This document shows, piece by piece, positions 22,160-64,000 of a stretch of 64,000 nucleotides of DNA; the stretch's first letter is position 1; every line of letters starts with the position of its first letter. The notes beneath the pieces were generated by a model. It searched no databases. It was not told the DNA's origin and saw only the letters and a list, made by a program, of their open reading frames with translations. Location of the stretch: assembly GCA_019925105.1 (NCBI GenBank), contig JAHGAU010000021.1, positions 930,001-994,000 of the forward strand, read 5' to 3'. The stretch comes from Niebla homalea. Taxonomy: Eukaryota > Ascomycota > Lecanoromycetes > Lecanorales > Ramalinaceae. The translations under genes and the position numbers were made by a program.

Positions 22160-22161
22160 TA

Positions 22162-22216
22162 GAAGAGTTCACCCCCTAACCGGACAAACCCCCTAACCGG
22201 ACACGCTAAACCCGAT
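22162..22216 (+). repeat. Left 55-bp terminal inverted repeat
   Basis: Perfect inverse of 26732-26786. Begins GAAGAGTTCA and ends AAACCCGAT, with a doubled internal 15-mer. Confidence 0.9.
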
Positions 22217-24887: not shown

Positions 24888-25776
24888 AATAACAGCAATA
24901 ATTAAGTTCCGATTCTACTTATATCGTTATATATAAGAGGGACCCTAAATATACCCTTATTAACCGGTAGATTATAGTACGTAAAGTACTTAGCTTAATA
25001 AACTACCGACTTTTAAGCACCCTTTAATTAACGGATTATATACTATACGTAGTACCTATACTTAAAGTTATAAACCAGTAAATAATACGTTCTTTTATAA
25101 TAACTTTTTATTTTCGAAGACTTATAAATATAATAGTTAATTATTAACCTAACCTCCGGACCGTAATACTTATAATAAGTAATAAAGACTTTATATTAAA
25201 GATCGATAGGGACGTAAGTTAAATATAACGGATAAAGAAGGATACTTTAAACTATATATTTTAAAGTCGGTATAAAAACCTTACCATTTATATATTTTAG
25301 GGCCGGCATAAAGGCCTTATATATACTCCTTATATTATATACTTTACGGTTAATATAAAGACTATATAAAGAGTATATATTACCGTAATGGTAAGAATAA
25401 GTTATTACTTAATTTATAGTATATAATACTTATAACTTAACTAGTTAATTAATAAAAGCAAAAGCATAAACATAAGTAATAATAATAAGGATATATATTT
25501 ACCCGGTAAAACCACGGAGATCACGTTTTTAAACGATTCAGCTTAAATCCAATCGCTTAAAATCCACGACTATTTCCCGGGTTACGGTCCCGTTCGGTCC
25601 TCATTAATATTACCGTTTACTTTACCTTATTACTTATTAACCAGTTAATAAATAACGTTATTAATATACTTAAAGCTTATTCTTAGTTACCTTTATTACC
25701 GAGTAAGCCAATATCCATAGCGTTTTATAATGGATAGTCCGACGTAGGCGTCGGCTTTTTCCTTTTTATGGGCACT

Positions 25777-25938
25777 TATTACGTGCAAGCAGTATAAATA
25801 CCAAGATAGGCATAGCGCAGGGGCTTAGGGCTATATATGCTTGGCGCGTACCCACATAACTAGCAACACCGTTCATAGTTGCAATCCAGGCAGTTACCAC
25901 TCCACCCTCAATACCTGCACTTCGTCTTTTCCCTGATA
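25777..25938 (+). repeat. Right LTR, small LTR element copy 4 (162 bp)
   Basis: Direct repeat of 24726-24887. Ends CCTGATA before the AATAA duplication. Confidence 0.9.
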
Positions 25939-26149
25939 AATAATAAAGCTTTATTAATATAATTATTAAGTGTATTATTAGGAATATTGTACTTTTTAAT
26001 AATCTTCCTTTATAAGATATTACGGTTCTATTTATAATATTAATACATAAGGTTAATCCGTTCGGCCAGAATAAATTTTATAAAGGTTATATATAACTTT
26101 AAGTAAATAGGGTTCCTATTTACCTCTCTTGGTTAAGTCCTTTATTTAA

Positions 26150-26545
26150 AGCAGTATTTTTAAGCTTATTACGATATAAATATATAAGGATTAAAGGTGG
26201 CTTTATATTAAAGGGTTTACGGAAGGGTTTATAAAAGATTTTACGGAAGGGCTTACTTATTTCTTAGAGTCTTTAATTAAAACATAATAATTTAAAGCTT
26301 ATCGTAATAAAGGTATTTAAGGATTAAGCGTAATTTCTTACGGAAAAGTTTGCGGAAAACCTTACGGAAGGGCCTATAGAGGACCTTACGGAAAAGCTTA
26401 CTTATATCTTAAGTTTTTTATTTAAAACGTAATAATTTTAAGCTTATCGCAATAAAGGTATATAAGGATTAGGTATAACCTTATATTAAAGGGTTTACGG
26501 AGGGGCTTACGGAGGGGCTTGCGGAAGGGCTTGCTGAAAGGTTTG
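26150..26545 (+). repeat. Tandem repeat of about 135-146 bp, nearly three units
   Basis: AAGCTTAT(C/T)(G/A)C-type anchors recur at about 26163, 26296 and 26442. Each unit holds TATAAGGATTA and GGTTTACGGAAGGG-like segments. The last part (26496-26542) contains a 15-bp sub-repeat GGGGCTTACGGAG. It lies near the right end of the TIR transposon. A 95-codon minus-strand frame here is repeat-derived (KPLRKPLRKPF) and is not called a gene. Confidence 0.65.
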
Positions 26546-26562
26546 TTTATTAGTGAGATTAA

Positions 26563-26616
26563 GGGTGACGGTGACGGTGACGGTAACGGTAACGGTAACG
26601 GTGACGGTAGCGGTGA
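26563..26616 (+). repeat. Hexamer microsatellite (GGTGAC/GGTAAC)n
   Basis: About eight to nine units of GGT(G/A)AC with variants GGTAGC and GGTGAT. The same hexamer type, on the opposite strand, builds the large array at the right end of the window. Confidence 0.8.
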
Positions 26617-26731
26617 TAACAATAGTAAGGATGAGACTATCCAAATCCTATTTACTGGCAGTCTAGTAGAGTAATATGGGTGTAAAAGGTAAGTTGAAGA
26701 CCTAACCAAAAGAAAAAATTAAAAAATCCCA

Positions 26732-26786
26732 ATCGGGTTTAGCGTGTCCGGTTAGGGGGTTTGTCCGGTTAGGGGGTGAACTCTTC
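26732..26786 (-). repeat. Right 55-bp terminal inverted repeat
   Basis: Perfect inverse of 22162-22216, followed by TA and then by non-mutated gene-island sequence. Confidence 0.9.
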
Positions 26787-26788
26787 TA

Positions 26789-27738
26789 CCGACCATCGCC
26801 AATCGCCGATCGACGGATTCTCGATGATCGAGCGCTGCCCTCTCATTCGCCGACCGTGTCCACACCGCTGCACCAGTTCGGTTCCAACTGAGAAGGTTCT
26901 ACGGAGGAGTATTTCCGGGCGAGCTGACGACCGCCTCTCTCACCGCCTCTCTCACCGCCTCTCTCACGACTTCGCCTCTGTACATTGCCGATCACCGTTT
27001 CACTACTGCTCAGCTGATCATCCATTGGGAAAATACGTCACGCAGCTCGCGAAGTGTGCTATTTCGGTATAAGGGCATATTCCAAGTGTGTGTCATGGCG
27101 GAAGCCAGGTTGGCAGGTTGCAAATCAGGGGATATCATTTCTCATATGTAGCATTTAGGGGCGATGAACCTTGTGATTCTCTACCTACATACGTTGATCT
27201 CTCCGTTCTCCCGCGAAGAGAGAGCGTAGCTTACTAGGATGGATCACTGCGGATCCCCCGTTAACTTTGCAGACTGGGAATCTGGGGACTTGGATTCGTC
27301 TCTCTCACGACCGGTCGTTCTGCCAATTTCTTGTGATTATTCAACCGATGGAAATTGACATATACCTCGTCTGCGTATCGTATGTGGTTTGCTCGAGGTT
27401 GGTCAGGCTAGAAGGCAGTAATGCAGGGAAGCTACTGACGTGAGCGTGATGCCGGTACATCGGGTCCAAGGGATTCAGAATTCATCATCGTAACTCAGAA
27501 AAGATCCCTGTTGCCCACCCTTGCATCAGTACATTGTTAACTAGGAATCGATCTACAACGCAGTTAAACAGAAGCCAGCTGAGTTATTATGAGCTGTTTT
27601 CTTAACTGGTCGGGTGAAAAGGCAACAGTGCAGCAGAGACGCGGCTGAAGTGAGGGTGATGTCAGTAAGTCTCAGCAGAAAATCCTTATTCCCACAGGAA
27701 GAGAGCATGTGCTAAATCTCTTGTCAGCCAAACTATGA
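26789..27738. other. Gene-island DNA upstream of the secreted-protein gene, no other gene seen
   Basis: GC-normal, not RIP-mutated. It includes a three-fold ACCGCCTCTCTC repeat (about 26930-26965). A diverged direct repeat also appears: GGCAGTAATGCAGGGAAG...GTGAGCGTGATG near 27414, and GGCAACAGTGCAGCAG...GTGAGGGTGATG near 27621. Open frames at 26776-27072 (plus) and 26843-27025 (minus) overlap each other, and the first starts inside the transposon end, so neither is credible. The region may hold the promoter and part of an older gene cut by the transposon. Confidence 0.5.
26930..26966 (+). repeat. 12-bp tandem repeat ACCGCCTCTCTC x3
   Basis: Three perfect copies in the gene island. No function evident. 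Confidence 0.75.
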
Positions 27739-27739
27739 A

Positions 27740-27747
27740 TATAAAAG
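27740..27747 (+). promoter_or_regulatory. TATA box candidate for the secreted-protein gene
   Basis: TATAAAAG lies about 150 bases before the start codon. It is followed by a pyrimidine-rich stretch (CGTCCTTTCCTGC) and a CAACAA-rich leader, a common layout of filamentous-fungal promoters and 5' leaders. Confidence 0.6.
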
Positions 27748-27893
27748 ACACGTCCTTTCCTGCTAGTTCTTGAGAATTTACATTCGACAACAAACACAAC
27801 AACCACATCTACAATCAATACAGCTACACCTTAACACAGCCATTTTCAATCCTTACCAATCGTCCAACACTCAACAATATCAAATCATCCATT

Positions 27894-28239
27894 ATGAAGA
27901 CCACCTTCATCATCGCTTCTATGGCCATCTTCGGCGCCATGGCAAACCCTGCTCCAAGCCCAATGGGCATCGAAGTTATTCGGCGAGACGATGGACGGAC
28001 TATGGTTCGTGAAGTTGTAAGTTTCAGTGACATAGGGTAGTCTTCAGTCGTCGTGGTTAATCTGAACCCAGGCTCGCTCGTTGAGCAAGCGATCATGCAC
28101 CAACTGCGTTCACGTTGGTGGTGCGTGCACAATTGGAGAGGGTAACTGCATGACCTCTGAGCATGCTTCTTGCACGGACTGTGGCAGCGGGGATGTTATC
28201 TGCGTTGATACCGACGGGGGCTCTTGCGAGGCCCCCTGA
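27894..28239 (+). CDS. Small secreted cysteine-rich protein, Kex2-processed, 96 aa, one intron (candidate effector)
   Basis: Exons 27894-28016 and 28072-28239 join in phase 0 to give 96 residues. Residues 1-17 form a signal peptide (MKTTFIIASMAIFGAMA, cut before NP). Residues 18-48 are a propeptide ending in the dibasic Lys-Arg (47-48) of a Kex2 site; an Arg-Arg at 30-31 is an alternative. The mature part (49-96) is 48 residues with eight cysteines at 50, 53, 60, 67, 75, 78, 85 and 93, enough for four disulfides. They fall into two similar modules, SCT(N/D)C-x6-C-x6/7-C. The chain is acidic and rich in Gly, Thr and Ser. The unspliced frame stops at 28040, so splicing is required. The start is the first ATG after the TATA box and leader. 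I recognise no family; a secreted effector, antimicrobial peptide or Kex2-released signal are all possible. It sits alone in a GC-normal island walled in by RIP-mutated transposons, a classic location for effector genes in fungal plant pathogens (context only). Confidence 0.75.
28017..28071 (+). other. 55-bp spliceosomal intron of the secreted-protein gene
   Basis: Begins GTAAGT and ends CCCAG. A TTAAT branch-site candidate (28056-28060) lies 11 bases before the 3' splice site. Two earlier AGs (28026 and 28046) would each lead quickly to a stop, so only 28071 keeps the cysteine-rich frame open. Confidence 0.75.
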
Positions 28240-28830
28240 GCCTACAGAAGCGGCGGTGTGGTCAAAAGCTCGGTGCAGGCTTTATTTTCCGAATGTACGA
28301 ATGGTGTCGTAATCACAATCGTTTTCTGTATCTTAAGGCCTTAAATAAGAGTTTTCACATATTACTACGAACTGGCGTATGTGTTGTGCTAGGTGGTGGT
28401 GAGAGGAATTCATTGAGTCAACTATCTGATGAGAAAAGAGAAGGGAGCAGGGAAGGCCCTACATTATGTACAGGGAGCGTACTCAGATGTACGCCCAGGT
28501 GATGAGAAGTTCACAACACTTTCATCACAACACAACCCTGTCTCCAACACATGATTGGTGCGTTCATCAACACGTCCAACAGTTTGTTCATTCACATCGC
28601 CATTTAGAAGGCATCAAATTAATATTCCTTTACGCCAAGTAAGAAAATATTAAGAAAGTATATAACCAAAGTACGGCCACTGGAAACCTGCAAGCTACTT
28701 ACCAGAACAGCTTGTTCACACTTCAGCCTTATCATAGGTACGGCGGGCCATAGGGAGGAAGAGGACAATGCGGAATTTAGAATTTAGAAAATCAGAAATT
28801 TAAAAACCTTTTAAATACGATTAATTCACT
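28240..28830. other. 3' flank of the gene island
   Basis: GC-normal non-coding sequence. TTAAATAAGAG near 28341-28351 could serve as a poly(A) signal about 100 bases after the stop. A frame at 28224-28502 overlaps the gene's end and has no recognisable content. After about 28790 the DNA changes sharply to AT-rich. Confidence 0.5.
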
Positions 28831-28937
28831 ATATATATATTTATATTATAATATTTCTGGTCTTTTTAAACTTTAACTATATATATATAGTTATCACGGT
28901 ATAAGGGCTGCGATACTGATAGCCAAGAGCCCGGTTA

Positions 28938-28967
28938 ATGCGCTAGGCCCAACTGAGCCTAGCGCAT
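28938..28967. repeat. Perfect 11-bp hairpin near the island border
   Basis: ATGCGCTAGGC and GCCTAGCGCAT enclose an 8-base loop. Not followed by a T-run. It lies about 75 bases before the inverted repeat at 29041 and may belong to the end of that element. Confidence 0.8.
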
Positions 28968-29040
28968 GCCCTCCGTACACTTATATATAAGCATACTATA
29001 CCATAGATTTCTCTACATAATTGAAATTCAGTCATATTTA

Positions 29041-29243
29041 TCAGGGTTCAGGGTTATTAGTAGCTTAGGAATAGGCCCTACCGGGCCTACCTACCTAGGA
29101 GTGTCACCGACTGGATATACTAAGGCCTTTAGCCCCTTCACTTTTATACCTCTGTACTTTACTGTCTTTAATTATACGTAATATACCCTTTACCTTCCAA
29201 CCACCTTAAAGGGGCTTATACTTTAATATTATATTAAGGTTAA
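29041..29243 (+). repeat. Left member of a ~200-bp inverted repeat enclosing the 21-kb nest
   Basis: Matches the reverse complement of 50340-50570 with indels and RIP-type changes. The best part is TTAATTATACGTAATATACC and CTTCCAACCACC then GGGGCTTATACT. Removing the copia nest (30832-49787) and the short LINE insert at 49967-50319 leaves about 2.2 kb between the two arms, the size of a DNA transposon with long inverted ends. Exact termini and target duplication were not found. A 71-codon frame here is not a gene. Confidence 0.55.
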
Positions 29244-30831
29244 CCTATCTACGCCTTTATAAAGAGTAGCGAAATAAAATAAAGGCTTTTATGAATAATA
29301 ATTATTAATAACGGACGGTAAATTAATAATTAATAACGGTATTAAACGGGCGTTAATTACGGTTAAAACGTATAACGATTAATAGTTAAACGGACCATAA
29401 GAAAACGTTAATAATTAAAACGGAAAATTACGATAACTTTAAATAAATAAATATAAATTCTATTAAGTTATATAAAGAATTAATTTAAAAGTTAAACCTT
29501 AATAAAGTAATTTAAAGCTTATAAGAAAAGTAAACCTTAGAAGAATTATTATAAATTTAATTAAAAATAAACTTATAGGAGTTTATAAAATCCTTATTTA
29601 CCTTTTTACTTATTAAAACCTTTAATTAAGATATTTAATTTTATACTTATTTTATAATATAGGGTATTTAATACCCGGAAGAAAGAACACTTTAAGGAGT
29701 ACTTTATAATATAGGGGAGCAATATTAAATCTTATTATAATGTAAGTTTTATTGTTTTACCCTATAATATTACCTTTATAATACGGAATCCGTTTAACGG
29801 AAAAGTTAAAAAAACCTATCTCTTTCCTTCTTTTTAATCTTTTTTTTTTATTCATTTTTATTTTTCTTTTATTTTTCCCTATTTTTCCCTTATTTTTATT
29901 TACCGAAGTTATAAATGATAAACCTTAATAATCTTTTCTATTAAGGTTTTTACGTTAAAATGTAACTTATAAAGTAATTCTTAAAAAGACCCCGATTAAT
30001 TAATATTATTTATTAAGGATAAAATTTTTTCATAATTCAATAAAAAAAATAAGGACCTATTAAATTATTTAATTACCAAGAATTTATTTTTAAATAGTAA
30101 TTATAAAAAATATAAAAACTATTTTACCCATTAACTTTATTATAAATTAAAAGGTATTACCTTAAAGGAATTAATTAAATGTATTTTATACCTTATAGAG
30201 ACTTGCGTTTATTTTACTTTTTAATTTATATTATTTAAGAAATATAAGGAATTCTTAAAGTAATTAAATTTTTTATATTCAGAACGTAACGTTAATATAT
30301 AATATTATAAAAACGTAAACGATAAAATATAAGTCCTTTAAATAAAATTAAATAATATTAAAAGAAATTTATAATTAAAAATTAATTAAATTTTCCGCTT
30401 ATAATAATAAAATTATAGAGATTTCCTTCCCCCAGAAGATTTAAACCGTTTTAAAGCGTTAAAAATCCGTAATTATAAATTAAAAAGTTGAAACGTAAAC
30501 TTTATTATTAAGCTTAAAAATCTTTAACGGAATAATTTAACCCTTTTATTTTATTGATTTATAATATCCTTTACCCTTTATAAAAAGCTTAAGTTAATTA
30601 AAATTAAAACCCTTAAACTTTTTATAAAGGAAAACCGTAATTAATATTATTCTTTAAACGTTACGTTATTATTAAGCTTTAAATAAATAAAAATCAATAA
30701 TTAATTATATAAATTTAAATTAATTATATTTTAATATTATTAAACTTTAAAGTCCTTGAATAATTAAAAACCCAATATAATAATAACGTTTTATTAAACT
30801 TTTAAACCTTTAAGGAATTCTAGATTTTTTT
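29244..30831. other. RIP-mutated interior of the inverted-repeat element
   Basis: AT-rich with many CG dinucleotides. No continuous frame recognised. It may hold a decayed transposase. The T/C-rich stretch at 29820-29900 is low complexity. Confidence 0.45.
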
Positions 30832-30993
30832 TGTTAAATGTCCAGGATCGCCACTTGGGAGATTACGTAACGCGGATCAGATTAAATAAGGCGGACGTAT
30901 TAAACTTAAGTAAAATAGCGGCATATAGTTTTATATATAGTCTTACTTTAGATATAATAATAATTAAGTAACTTATACCTTTTAACTTTAATA
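30832..30993 (+). repeat. 5' LTR of the nested copia (162 bp)
   Basis: Starts TGTTAAATGTCCAGGATCGC. Equal in length to the LTRs at 49626 and 60026. Its GC-normal core (CACTTGGGAGATTACGTAAC) is conserved in all three. Confidence 0.9.
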
Positions 30994-31015
30994 AATTTTA
31001 AGCCCGGACTACGCG
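30994..31015 (+). other. Half-tRNA(iMet)-type primer-binding site of the copia
   Basis: TTTTAAGCCCGGACTACGCG here, GTTATAAGCCCGGATTATA at 60189 and, on the minus strand at 56965, GTTATAAGCCCGGAAAA. Undoing one RIP change gives GTTATGAGCCC, the complement of the anticodon-side end of the 5' half of initiator tRNA-Met. Confidence 0.7.
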
Positions 31016-60187: not shown

Positions 60188-63158
60188 AGTTATAAGCCCG
60201 GATTATATATTTAAATACTTAAATAATATCTTCTTAATATTTAAATTAACTTATAAACGGTAATAAACTTATAATATAAAATATACTTATAAATAATACT
60301 TATATATAAGTTATATTATTAAAAATCGATTTAATTAAACGTATAATATTACGGCTATAAATAAAAAAAGTTTATTTAATTATTTATATTCCTAAATTAA
60401 GAAAAAGGACATTTTATTAATAAGAATATATAGATTATTATTTCTTAGCCCTATTAAAGGCCGTAAATGCCTATATATTAGAAAAGTTAAGTTAATACCG
60501 AGTTAACGGAGCTAAAACGTAAAGCTTTTAAGGCTAATATATATACGTAAAGCCTTAACCGGAATTTAAATAAGAAATTTAAAACGTTAAATAAATATTA
60601 AATATATTATAAAACTTTATTAAGTTTAAAGCCTTAAAAACCGTATTAAAATCAAGTTTTTTCGAAATTAATTAAAAATAAATTATTTAGATTTAAATAT
60701 ATTATAGCTTAAAATTATTTACTTTAATTTAATTTTAAAGAATAAATATAGGACGGAATAAATAGTTAACGGCTAAACCTCTTAAAGTAAGGATTAATCC
60801 AAAAAAAAAGGTTAAGAACCAATTATAGAATTCTTTAATAATAATTAAACTTAAGATGAACCTATTTATTATAGATTATAAAAATTAAAGCCTTTAAGTT
60901 AAAATAAAGTAATTAAAATAAGTTTAAATACTTTAATTATAAAGATTAAAAGCCTTTAAATAAAAAAAAAACAATAATCTTAAAGGTATATATATAATAT
61001 TATAATACGTTATAAAATTTCGTTTTAAGCTTAACCGGAATCCTTTAATTAATAAGGCTTTATATTATTTATTACCTTAAATTATATAATAATCTCGTAT
61101 AAAATATAATACTTAAACCTTATTATTTAATAATATCGTTATATATAAAGTACTTTTTTTCCCTTTATATTTAAAGACTTAAGGAAGGAAAACCGTTTTA
61201 ATTTAATTAATAAAGATTAAGTTTAAAGTAGGGATTATTTATTACCGTAAACGTTAAAGTTATATAATAGTTTTAACTTAAAAACGTTTAAGGAACCTTT
61301 AAACGACTTATTAAATACTATTATCTTTAAGTTGAATATAAACGTTAAGAATTAAATATTATTATTTAACGTAAATTATTTTTTTATTCTTAAATAATAA
61401 GCCTTTAACGTATTAAACGTCGTTAAACTTAAACTTAAATATTATTAATAATTATAATATAATTAATATTTTATTAATATTATTTTCTATGTATTTTATT
61501 AACGATAACGATTAAGAAAGACTTTATTATAAGGGGTTTTCCTTTAAGGTTAATCTCTTTATTAATAAATTAACGGTAATAAATATTATAAAATTAATAA
61601 ATAAAAAACTAAATAACGATTAATAATTTTTAAAAGTTAAAGGAAAAAGATACCTTTAAGGTATATTTAACCTTAAAGAACCGGTACGGTATTAATATTA
61701 AGTATTTAATCGATATTATAAAAGCCCGGATATAATCTAAAAAGATTTAAGGATTAATATAAGCTTTAAGGGTTTAAACTATATATAAAGTTTACTTAAG
61801 AGCTTATAAGCTTATAAAAGGCCTTAAATATAATAATTAATAAATATAATAACCGCTATTAAAAAGTCTATACTGAAATTAAGGTGATTAATAGCTTTTT
61901 AATTATTTTAAATTACCTCGTTATTTAAATATTCTTAAATAAATTAAAGGAATTATAATAAATATAATACTTAGTATTTATTTAAACAACTATATAATAA
62001 GGCCCGGGTATCCTTAAATTTTACAATATTATATAAAAGGCTTATAATAAGGAAACTTAGACGGCTATTTAATAATTAAACGTTTTAATATAAGCTTATA
62101 AGGATATATTAAAGGGTTATAATAAAAAGACCTTTAATAAGACCCGAAAAAAGCTTATCTATTAATATTATACTTAAAAAAAACGTAATAATAAGTATAT
62201 TAAAAATAAATATTAAGACCTTTACCTTAAAAAGAAGCTTATAAAGTTCTATATTAAAAAGCCTAAAATTATTAAGGAAATTATTACGTTTATAAACCTT
62301 TTAATAATAAATTCTTATTTATTAAAATATATATAATAATTAATAACGATAATATCCGTTACCTTAATAAATTTATAAAAATTAATAATCCTTAATAATA
62401 ACTATAATTAATATATTTTTTATAAAAAAAGATTCTTTTAAAGGGAATTAAAACTTTATTAATTTTTATTTTTAAGGCCCGGGTTAATAAGAATAAGTTA
62501 TATAAGGGGTATAAGCACTATTTATATAATATATAAGGTAAATAATAAGCCTATTAAGGTAAAATTTACGGATATAATATATTCCCCGATAAACTTAATT
62601 AATCTTATATTTAAAACGTAACTTCTAGATTATAAGGCTTAACTTAATATAACGTAAACGGTCCGGATAATAACGTATGGTTAAAAAAAGCTTATTTATA
62701 ATAAATAAAATAATTTATTTATAATTAATTTATAAAAACTTATCCTTATTATAATAACGTTTAACGTACTTTTAACTATATTTATTTAATATATATATAT
62801 AAGTTACCTTAAAGCTTAAAAATTATTTTAATTAATAAATATATTGATTAAAATAGATCTTAAATATAAACGTTATAGTAATAATAAAACCAAAAACGTT
62901 TACTATATATATTATATTATTAAACGGTTATATTTTCAATTATATAAGGGATATTTTAAACCTATAGAAAACCCGTTAAAGCTTATTTATATAAACTTTT
63001 TAAAGATAATTAATCTTTAAAAATATAACGGAATAACGTATTATATAACCTTCCGTAATAATAAGATTATAATATTAAAAATTTATTTATTAATATATAA
63101 ATCGGACGTAATTTAACGGTTTAAAGAGTTTAAACCTAGGTATAAATAACCCCCGGAT
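60026..63158 (+). mobile_element. Truncated second copy of the nested copia
   Basis: The 5' LTR (60026-60187, 162 bp) and the following 3 kb align with 30832-32768, 38581-39777 and 45966-46480 in order, without the LINE and MITE insertions. This copy therefore gives the empty sites of those insertions. Similarity stops at about 63158 and a non-RIP sequence begins; no 3' LTR is present. Heavily RIP-mutated, no open frame. Confidence 0.87.
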
Positions 63159-63262
63159 TAAAGGATTACCTTACGGGTGTCCTGCAAATTTCTAAAAGGG
63201 TGTCAAAATGGTACCAAAATGCTTGGATTTTGAAAAGGGTATCAAAAGGGTTTCAAAAGGCT
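63159..63262. other. Non-mutated junction before the satellite
   Basis: GC-moderate sequence with recurring AAAAGGGT(G/A)TCAAAA motifs (63196, 63234, 63246). It breaks the copia abruptly. No gene recognised. Confidence 0.5.
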
Positions 63263-64000
63263 TTTACCTCACCCTCACCATCACCATCACCCTCACCATC
63301 ACCCTCACCATCACCCTCACCATCACCCTCACCATCACCCTCACCATCACCTGCACCACCCTCACCTGCACTACCACCCTCACCATCACCTTTACCTCCA
63401 CCCTTACCCGCACCCGCACCCTTCACTTGCACCCTCACCATCACCTGCACCATCACTCTCACCCTCACCTCACTTGCATTACCACCTTTACCACCACCTA
63501 CATCATCACCCTTACCACCACCTGCACCCTTACCCTCACCTGCACCCTTACCCTCACCTGCACCCTTACCCTCACCTGCACCCTTACCCTCACCTGCACC
63601 CTTACCCTCACCTGCACCACCCTCACCTGCACTACCACCCTTACCATCACCTTTACCTCCACCCTTACCCTTACCCGCACCCTCACTTGCACCCTCACCC
63701 GCACCCTCACCCTCACCCTCACCCTCACCCTAACCCGCACCTGCACCTGCACCTGCACCTGCACCTGCACCTGCACCTGCACTACCACTACCACTACCAC
63801 TACCACTACCACAACCACCCTCATCACCCTCATCACCCTCATCACCCTCATCACCCTCATCACCCTCATCACCCTCATCACCCTTACCTTCATCACCCTT
63901 ATCACCCTTACCCTCACTCTCACCCTCGCCATCACCTGCACTACCACCCTCACCTTACCACCACCCTCACCTACCTCACCATTACCATTACCATCACCAT
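63263..64000 (+). repeat. CACNNN hexamer satellite, strongly strand-asymmetric, continues past the window
   Basis: Built from CAC-starting hexamers in successive blocks: (CACCCTCACCAT)n at 63265-63348; an 18-bp unit CTGCACCCTTACCCTCAC about five times at 63518-63612; (CACCCT)n at 63690-63730; (CACCTG)n at 63737-63780; (CACTAC)n at 63779-63812; and a 9-bp unit CACCCTCAT about eight times at 63819-63882. A segment CTGCACCACCCTCACCTGCA at about 63352 recurs at about 63612, a higher-order copy. G is nearly absent from the plus strand except in TGCACC. The open frames here (Ser-Pro/Ala-Pro on plus, Arg-Val on minus) are products of the repeat and are not called genes. Confidence 0.9.

What the first reader, a model, noticed from the sequence alone, without database searches (positions are those of the whole stretch)
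27894..28239. Orphan secreted eight-cysteine protein with two tandem four-cysteine modules, alone in a transposon desert
The spliced product has a signal peptide, a propeptide ending in Lys-Arg, and a 48-residue mature part whose cysteines form SCT(N/D)C-x6-C-x6/7-C twice. Internal duplication of a CxxC...C...C unit in so small a peptide is unusual, and I know no family with it. The gene is the only credible host gene in 64 kb and sits in a GC-normal island between RIP-mutated elements, the typical setting of fungal effectors.
Basis: partly seen in the sequence, partly recalled or inferred. Interest (0 to 1): 0.9.

Follow-up and report, generated by a model that had tools for sequence, protein, structure and literature searches.

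The report
Conserved fungal secreted cysteine-rich protein
This looks like a real gene for a small, disulfide-rich secreted protein, and not an orphan: close relatives occur in lichen fungi, endophytes, saprobes and plant pathogens, in a family for which I found no name.

Summary
It is not an orphan: a profile search lists 51 relatives (E <= 10), 22 with organism names, from four classes of Pezizomycotina; exon 2 is 91-93% identical to Usnea, Cornicularia and Xylariales sp. AK1849. The intron is conserved: 27 of 29 family fragments go on with Val (GTN) at the same codon, 7 then run into exon 2 in another frame. No credible Pfam or NCBIfam match.

Two readings are not supported: a duplication beyond the cysteine spacing (426 of 2000 permutations reach the observed score), and a mere propeptide (that segment is as conserved as the Cys domain; a dibasic site precedes the first Cys in 10 of 26 members). 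Low-confidence models resemble one knottin-like fold across both 'modules'. The host is probably a lichen-forming Lecanoromycete (one neighbouring gene). Best guess: a widely kept extracellular ligand or inhibitor. Horizontal transfer is possible, not shown (AU p 0.20-0.35).

The parts
26751..28750 (.). GC-normal stretch without RIP signature between RIP-mutated repeats
   Evidence: composite RIP index between -0.99 and +0.09 in the eight 250-bp steps here, above +0.7 in 14 of the 16 steps listed on either side (25001-26750, 28751-31000); the left end is a repeat family
27740..27747 (+). TATA-box-like sequence about 150 bp before the ATG, followed by a CA-rich leader
   Evidence: read directly; not tested
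27894..28016 (+). exon 1, 41 aa: signal peptide (about residues 1-18, by eye) and the conserved GIEV...VREV segment
   Evidence: relatives of exon 1
27966..28016 (+). GIEV...VREV segment, predicted beta-hairpin in the model of relative P0004; as conserved as the Cys domain
   Evidence: mean share of the commonest residue 0.72, against 0.73 for non-Cys positions of the Cys domain; 21 members without the window
28017..28071 (+). 55-bp phase-0 intron, GTAAGT...CAG
   Evidence: 27 of 29 family fragments continue with V (24 with VS) at this codon, 7 run into exon 2 in another frame
28072..28239 (+). exon 2, 55 aa and stop: linker with Lys-Arg and the eight-Cys domain
28240..28345 (+). downstream stretch whose in-frame translation resembles, by eye, the read-on tail of relative P0012

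Best explanation
A single-copy gene of a probably lichen-forming fungus encodes a 96-residue secretory protein of a broadly conserved Pezizomycotina family for which I found no name. Shown: gene structure, family, conserved intron position, conserved GIEV...VREV segment plus eight-Cys domain. Inferred: the signal peptide sends it to the ER, where the eight cysteines oxidise into four disulfides that form one compact knottin-like domain; the GIEV...VREV segment, predicted as a hairpin, stays with it or is removed at the Lys-Arg site in those members that have one. The very acidic product (net -7 by K+R-D-E from the first Cys on, no aromatic residue there) acts outside the cell as a ligand or inhibitor of a target that many fungi meet, in the thallus matrix or on neighbouring cells, rather than as an effector tuned to one host. 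Estimated odds (judgement): gene real 0.97; secreted 0.9; disulfide-rich single domain 0.8; knottin-type fold 0.45; general extracellular ligand or inhibitor rather than host-specific effector 0.45.
Confidence: 0.45

Rival explanations
1. A symbiosis effector: the fungus secretes it to act on its photobiont (or a plant, in other members), as small secreted proteins are supposed to do.
For: Small, probably secreted, Cys-rich, in a repeat-rich compartment. PMC9232553 (passages read) reports small secreted proteins induced early in lichen symbiosis.
Against: The same paper's discussion calls most SSPs genus- or species-specific, while this exon 2 is 91-93% identical to members of two classes and the family occurs in dung, wood and insect fungi (lifestyles recalled). 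No second copy was found in the genome.
Confidence: 0.25
2. An antagonistic (antimicrobial or antifungal) peptide against competitors.
Against: The domain is strongly acidic: net -7 with no Lys or Arg after the first Cys, unlike classical cationic peptides (general knowledge). Other members are less acidic (one is +2, two are 0).
Confidence: 0.15
3. A secreted metal-binding (metallothionein-like) peptide, with the two CxxC pairs and the conserved His holding metal.
For: Two CxxC pairs and a His that is at least 90% conserved after the first pair. Weak Pfam matches of zinc type: zf-Tim10_DDP E 0.087 in 1 of 27 members, Zn_clus E 0.64 in 2 of 27, all far from significant.
Against: A secreted protein is normally oxidised in the ER (general knowledge). 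The conserved GIEV...VREV segment is unexplained.
Confidence: 0.06
4. A recently transferred gene (this can hold beside any of the functions): a near-identical copy has moved between distant fungi that share lichens or leaves.
For: Window, Usnea, Cornicularia and Xylariales sp. AK1849 are 85-93% alike, while AK1849 is 60% like Xylaria acuta and 72% like Xylariomycetidae sp. FL0641, and Monilinia 65% like Botrytis of its own family. The AK1849 copy lies on a 3.9-Mb contig, which speaks against simple contamination. A neighbouring enzyme is 44-48% identical to the non-lichen ascomycetes named in the list.
Against: AU tests do not reject class-wise clades (p 0.22 Sordariomycetes, 0.35 Leotiomycetes, 0.20 Lecanoromycetes with the window). 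DNA of the relatives could not be fetched. No intact mobile element was seen around the gene.
Confidence: 0.25
5. Not a functional gene in this genome: a chance open frame or a decayed copy.
For: Isolated in a RIP-mutated desert.
Against: Intact frame, splice sites and all eight Cys; E = 3.5e-25 to a relative.
Confidence: 0.02

Closest known systems
Unnamed Pezizomycotina family found here (for example BDR22DRAFT_894894 of Usnea florida, BJ170DRAFT_692334 of Xylariales sp. AK1849, CLAFUW4_08563 of Fulvia fulva)
   Same: Similar N-terminus, GIEV...VREV segment, eight Cys with the same gaps; intron at the same codon in the fragments that show it
   Different: Five Xylariaceae have 6 instead of 7 residues in the last gap; six Sordariomycete members have ten Cys; the dibasic site comes and goes
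Fungal knottin-type effectors, Melampsora MLP124266 and Fulvia Avr9
   Same: Small, secreted, disulfide-rich; the predicted model weakly resembles single cystine-knot peptides
   Different: No sequence match to a solved chain at E < 1; knot not shown; those two come from plant pathogens (PMC6889267 and PMC9632046, passages read)
Lichen small secreted proteins (PMC9232553)
   Same: Small secreted proteins of lichen-forming fungi
   Different: Described there as mostly genus- or species-specific; this one is shared between classes

Membership tests
The unnamed Pezizomycotina eight-Cys family | GIEV...VREV segment plus C-x2-C-x6-C-x6-C-x7-C-x2-C-x6-C-x6/7-C domain | tested here: met
The unnamed Pezizomycotina eight-Cys family | phase-0 intron between the two parts | tested here: met
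   27 of 29 fragments continue with V at the codon, 7 run into exon 2 in another frame
Knottin (inhibitor cystine knot) | Cys spacing C-x2-7-C-x3-10-C-x0-7-C-x1-17-C-x4-19-C (as given in PMC6889267) | tested here: inconclusive
   fits in nine ways, but 2334 of 5000 random placements and 5000 of 5000 gap shuffles fit too
Knottin (inhibitor cystine knot) | III-VI disulfide passing through I-IV and II-V | not testable with these tools
   model coordinates not at hand and models of low to medium confidence
Knottin (inhibitor cystine knot) | overall fold | tested here: inconclusive
Hydrophobin | eight Cys with two CC pairs (recalled) | tested here: not met
   no adjacent Cys; no hydrophobin among the Pfam matches of 27 members
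CFEM | match to the CFEM profile | tested here: not met
   no CFEM match for the 2 exons and 27 members
Species-specific fungal effector | restricted to one or a few related species | tested here: not met
   22 of 51 hits carry names, from 21 organisms
Species-specific fungal effector | induced on contact with the host and acting on it | not testable with these tools
   no RNA-seq or assay
Tandem duplicate of a four-Cys module | similarity of the halves beyond the cysteines | tested here: inconclusive
   426 of 2000 permutations reach the observed score (19 members), 967 of 2000 (8 members near the window), 99 of 2000 (five Xylariaceae, borderline); 14 positions give little power

The most novel reading that the evidence does not exclude
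An undescribed, Pezizomycotina-wide family of acidic knottin-like extracellular proteins, with a conserved N-terminal hairpin, that acts between organisms in lichens and on leaves and is passed horizontally between mycobionts and the endophytes that share their thalli.
Probability: 0.12. Interest if true: 0.7.

Novelty: new member of a known kind. Interest (0 to 1): 0.4.

Why it matters
Small secreted fungal proteins are often lineage-specific and hard to compare. A single-copy one that is nearly unchanged between a probable lichen fungus and a xylarialean points to a conserved extracellular target, or to transfer, and allows tests in tractable species. It also shows that an isolated secreted gene in a RIP-mutated desert need not be a young orphan effector.

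Tried and rejected
Orphan status: rejected. Duplicated module: not supported. Known families: no credible Pfam or NCBIfam match; the weak ones include GATase_5 E 0.26 for exon 1, LSM12_LSM 0.035, AcnX_swivel_put 0.075, zf-Tim10_DDP 0.087, Zn_clus 0.64 and a cobaltochelatase model 0.059 in 2 of 27. Nothing convincing among solved chains by sequence: best E 2.5 and 1.1. Structural libraries: small cystine-knot peptides recur at low Z; absence of other folds proves nothing. Horizontal transfer by tree: not resolved. Starship cargo: PF11917 matches 34 stretches, none in the window, the nearest a broken piece at C21:891929-892363, 66 kb from the gene. Paralogues: none seen. Telomere: the last 6.3 kb of the contig hold no TTAGGG and one lone CCCTAA. 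Prokaryote genome scan: one match, L014, which I take for chance (33% over 38 residues, a bacterial contig); viral contigs: none. The bacterial promoter scan means nothing for a fungus. Literature: protein ids and sequence words gave 0 papers each; of the other searches I saw the listings only, except for passages of three papers.

Rows dropped: the tree used 22 rows; read-through members (P0136, P0140, P0143, P0144), single-exon fragments, P0162, P0173 and P0012 were left out. The Cys table used 26 members that carry the domain (P0162, P0173 and the fragments left out); the duplication test used 19 of these 26, since six ten-Cys members and Monilinia P0007 do not fit the pattern.

Full report
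OBSERVATION. The window is C21:930001-994000 of a 50.6-Mb, 52-contig assembly. Exon 1 (27894-28016) gives 41 residues and exon 2 (28072-28236 plus stop) 55. The intron of 55 bp starts GTAAGT and ends CAG, phase 0. The Cys gaps are 2-6-6-7-2-6-7. The stretch from about 26751 to 28750 has normal GC and no RIP signature, while the window as a whole has GC 0.227 and composite RIP index +0.93. Four closed open frames of 110 codons or more exist in the window and none looks like a gene: one is antisense to this gene, one AT-rich, two in a CCTCAC repeat.

NOT AN ORPHAN. Exon 2 alone finds 10 proteins, 9 of them with E between 3.5e-25 and 6.5e-11 and one at 2.1e-8. A profile of nine of these finds 51 proteins with E <= 10 (these ten among them), 22 with organism names from 21 organisms: Usnea and Cornicularia (Lecanoromycetes), Aureobasidium and Fulvia (Dothideomycetes), Monilinia, Botrytis and Clarireedia (Leotiomycetes), and Sordariomycetes such as Xylariales sp. 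AK1849, Xylaria acuta and Xylariomycetidae sp. FL0641; the remaining ones, among them Nemania, Podospora, Niveomyces and, weakly (E 0.099, only the exon 1 part alike), Claviceps, are Sordariomycetes as I recall. Exon 2 is 93% identical to Cornicularia and AK1849 and 91% to Usnea (one search gives 93% for all three over the local alignment). No credible Pfam match for the window's exons or 27 members, and no credible NCBIfam match for the 27 members.

GENE MODEL. Many unnamed relatives are frames of exon 1 that run on into the intron. Of 29 such or similar fragments, 27 continue with Val after the conserved R-E-V (24 with Val-Ser, as GTAAGT gives), and seven (P0149, P0152, P0156, P0164, P0165, P0166, P0167) then run into exon 2 in another frame. 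The two that do not (P0162, P0173) are annotated gene models that go on otherwise. This supports the intron without RNA data. The translated leader of P0170 and the tail of P0012 also resemble, by eye, the window's untranslated flanks.

ANATOMY. In 21 aligned members (the window not among them) the mean share of the commonest residue is 0.53 for the signal part, 0.72 for the GIEV...VREV segment, 0.40 for the linker and 0.73 for the non-Cys positions of the domain. The segment is predicted as a beta-hairpin in P0004 (strands 26-32 and 35-41). A dibasic site stands within four residues of the first Cys in 10 of 26 members, the window's included; any basic residue within three in 17 of 26. So it is a constrained part, perhaps kept in the mature protein, not clearly a disposable propeptide. 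The two halves of the domain resemble each other no more than permuted halves: 426 of 2000 permutations reach the observed score for 19 members, 967 of 2000 for 8 members near the window, and 99 of 2000, a borderline value, for five Xylariaceae. From the first Cys on the window's domain holds seven acidic, no basic and no aromatic residues; across the 26 members the net value runs from -7 to +2.

ORGANISM AND SETTING. That makes a lichen-forming Lecanoromycete probable. The fetched flank from 994001 to the contig end is RIP-mutated in each 1-kb step measured (index 0.82-1.42), without a telomere array. No second copy of the gene was found.

HISTORY. The tree mixes classes, and some pairs across classes are closer than pairs within them (AK1849-Usnea 85%, AK1849-Xylaria acuta 60%, Monilinia-Botrytis 65%). 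Eleven Sordariomycete rows without AK1849 and FL0641 form one side of a branch (support 87/96), and the two Dothideomycetes group (92/91). But the alignment is short and the AU tests reject neither all Sordariomycetes (p 0.22), nor these without AK1849 (0.33), nor Leotiomycetes (0.35), nor Lecanoromycetes with the window (0.20). Horizontal transfer is a lead only.

FUNCTION. Knottin-type fungal effectors are known (PMC6889267 and PMC9632046, passages read), and lichen small secreted proteins are reported as mostly genus- or species-specific and induced early in symbiosis (PMC9232553, passages read). A protein kept nearly unchanged between classes and lifestyles fits a general extracellular ligand or inhibitor better than a host-tuned effector. 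This is inference; no activity was tested.

VERDICT. A conserved family of small secreted Cys-rich proteins for which searches found no name; ordinary in kind, interesting for its conservation. The orphan reading is wrong; the duplication and pathogen-effector readings are not supported.

Noticed in passing
window 22160-22216 (-) and 26732-26788 (+): A 57-bp perfect inverted repeat 4.5 kb apart belongs to a repeat family found in many contigs, in several as inverted pairs 0.6-0.9 kb apart, so the island's left edge is probably the end of a transposon-like element.
   Followed up: partly
window 28382-28581: A stretch just downstream of the gene recurs in part at C13, C27, C43, C4 and C18 at 75-98% identity, without the gene.
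   Followed up: partly
P0141, P0142, P0145, P0146, P0147, P0148: Six Sordariomycete relatives have ten cysteines, one extra in the loop of the second half and one at the C-terminus, perhaps an added disulfide.
   Followed up: no
P0007 (Monilinia): This member lacks the last Cys and ends differently, a possible gene-model error or decaying copy.
   Followed up: no
window 63101-63950: GC-rich CCTCAC-type tandem repeat with extreme strand skew inside the AT-rich desert.
   Followed up: no
G000:C21:891929-892363: Broken DUF3435 (PF11917) piece, one of 34 matched stretches in the genome; most hold stops, five pieces on C16, C9 and C46 have none inside.
   Followed up: no
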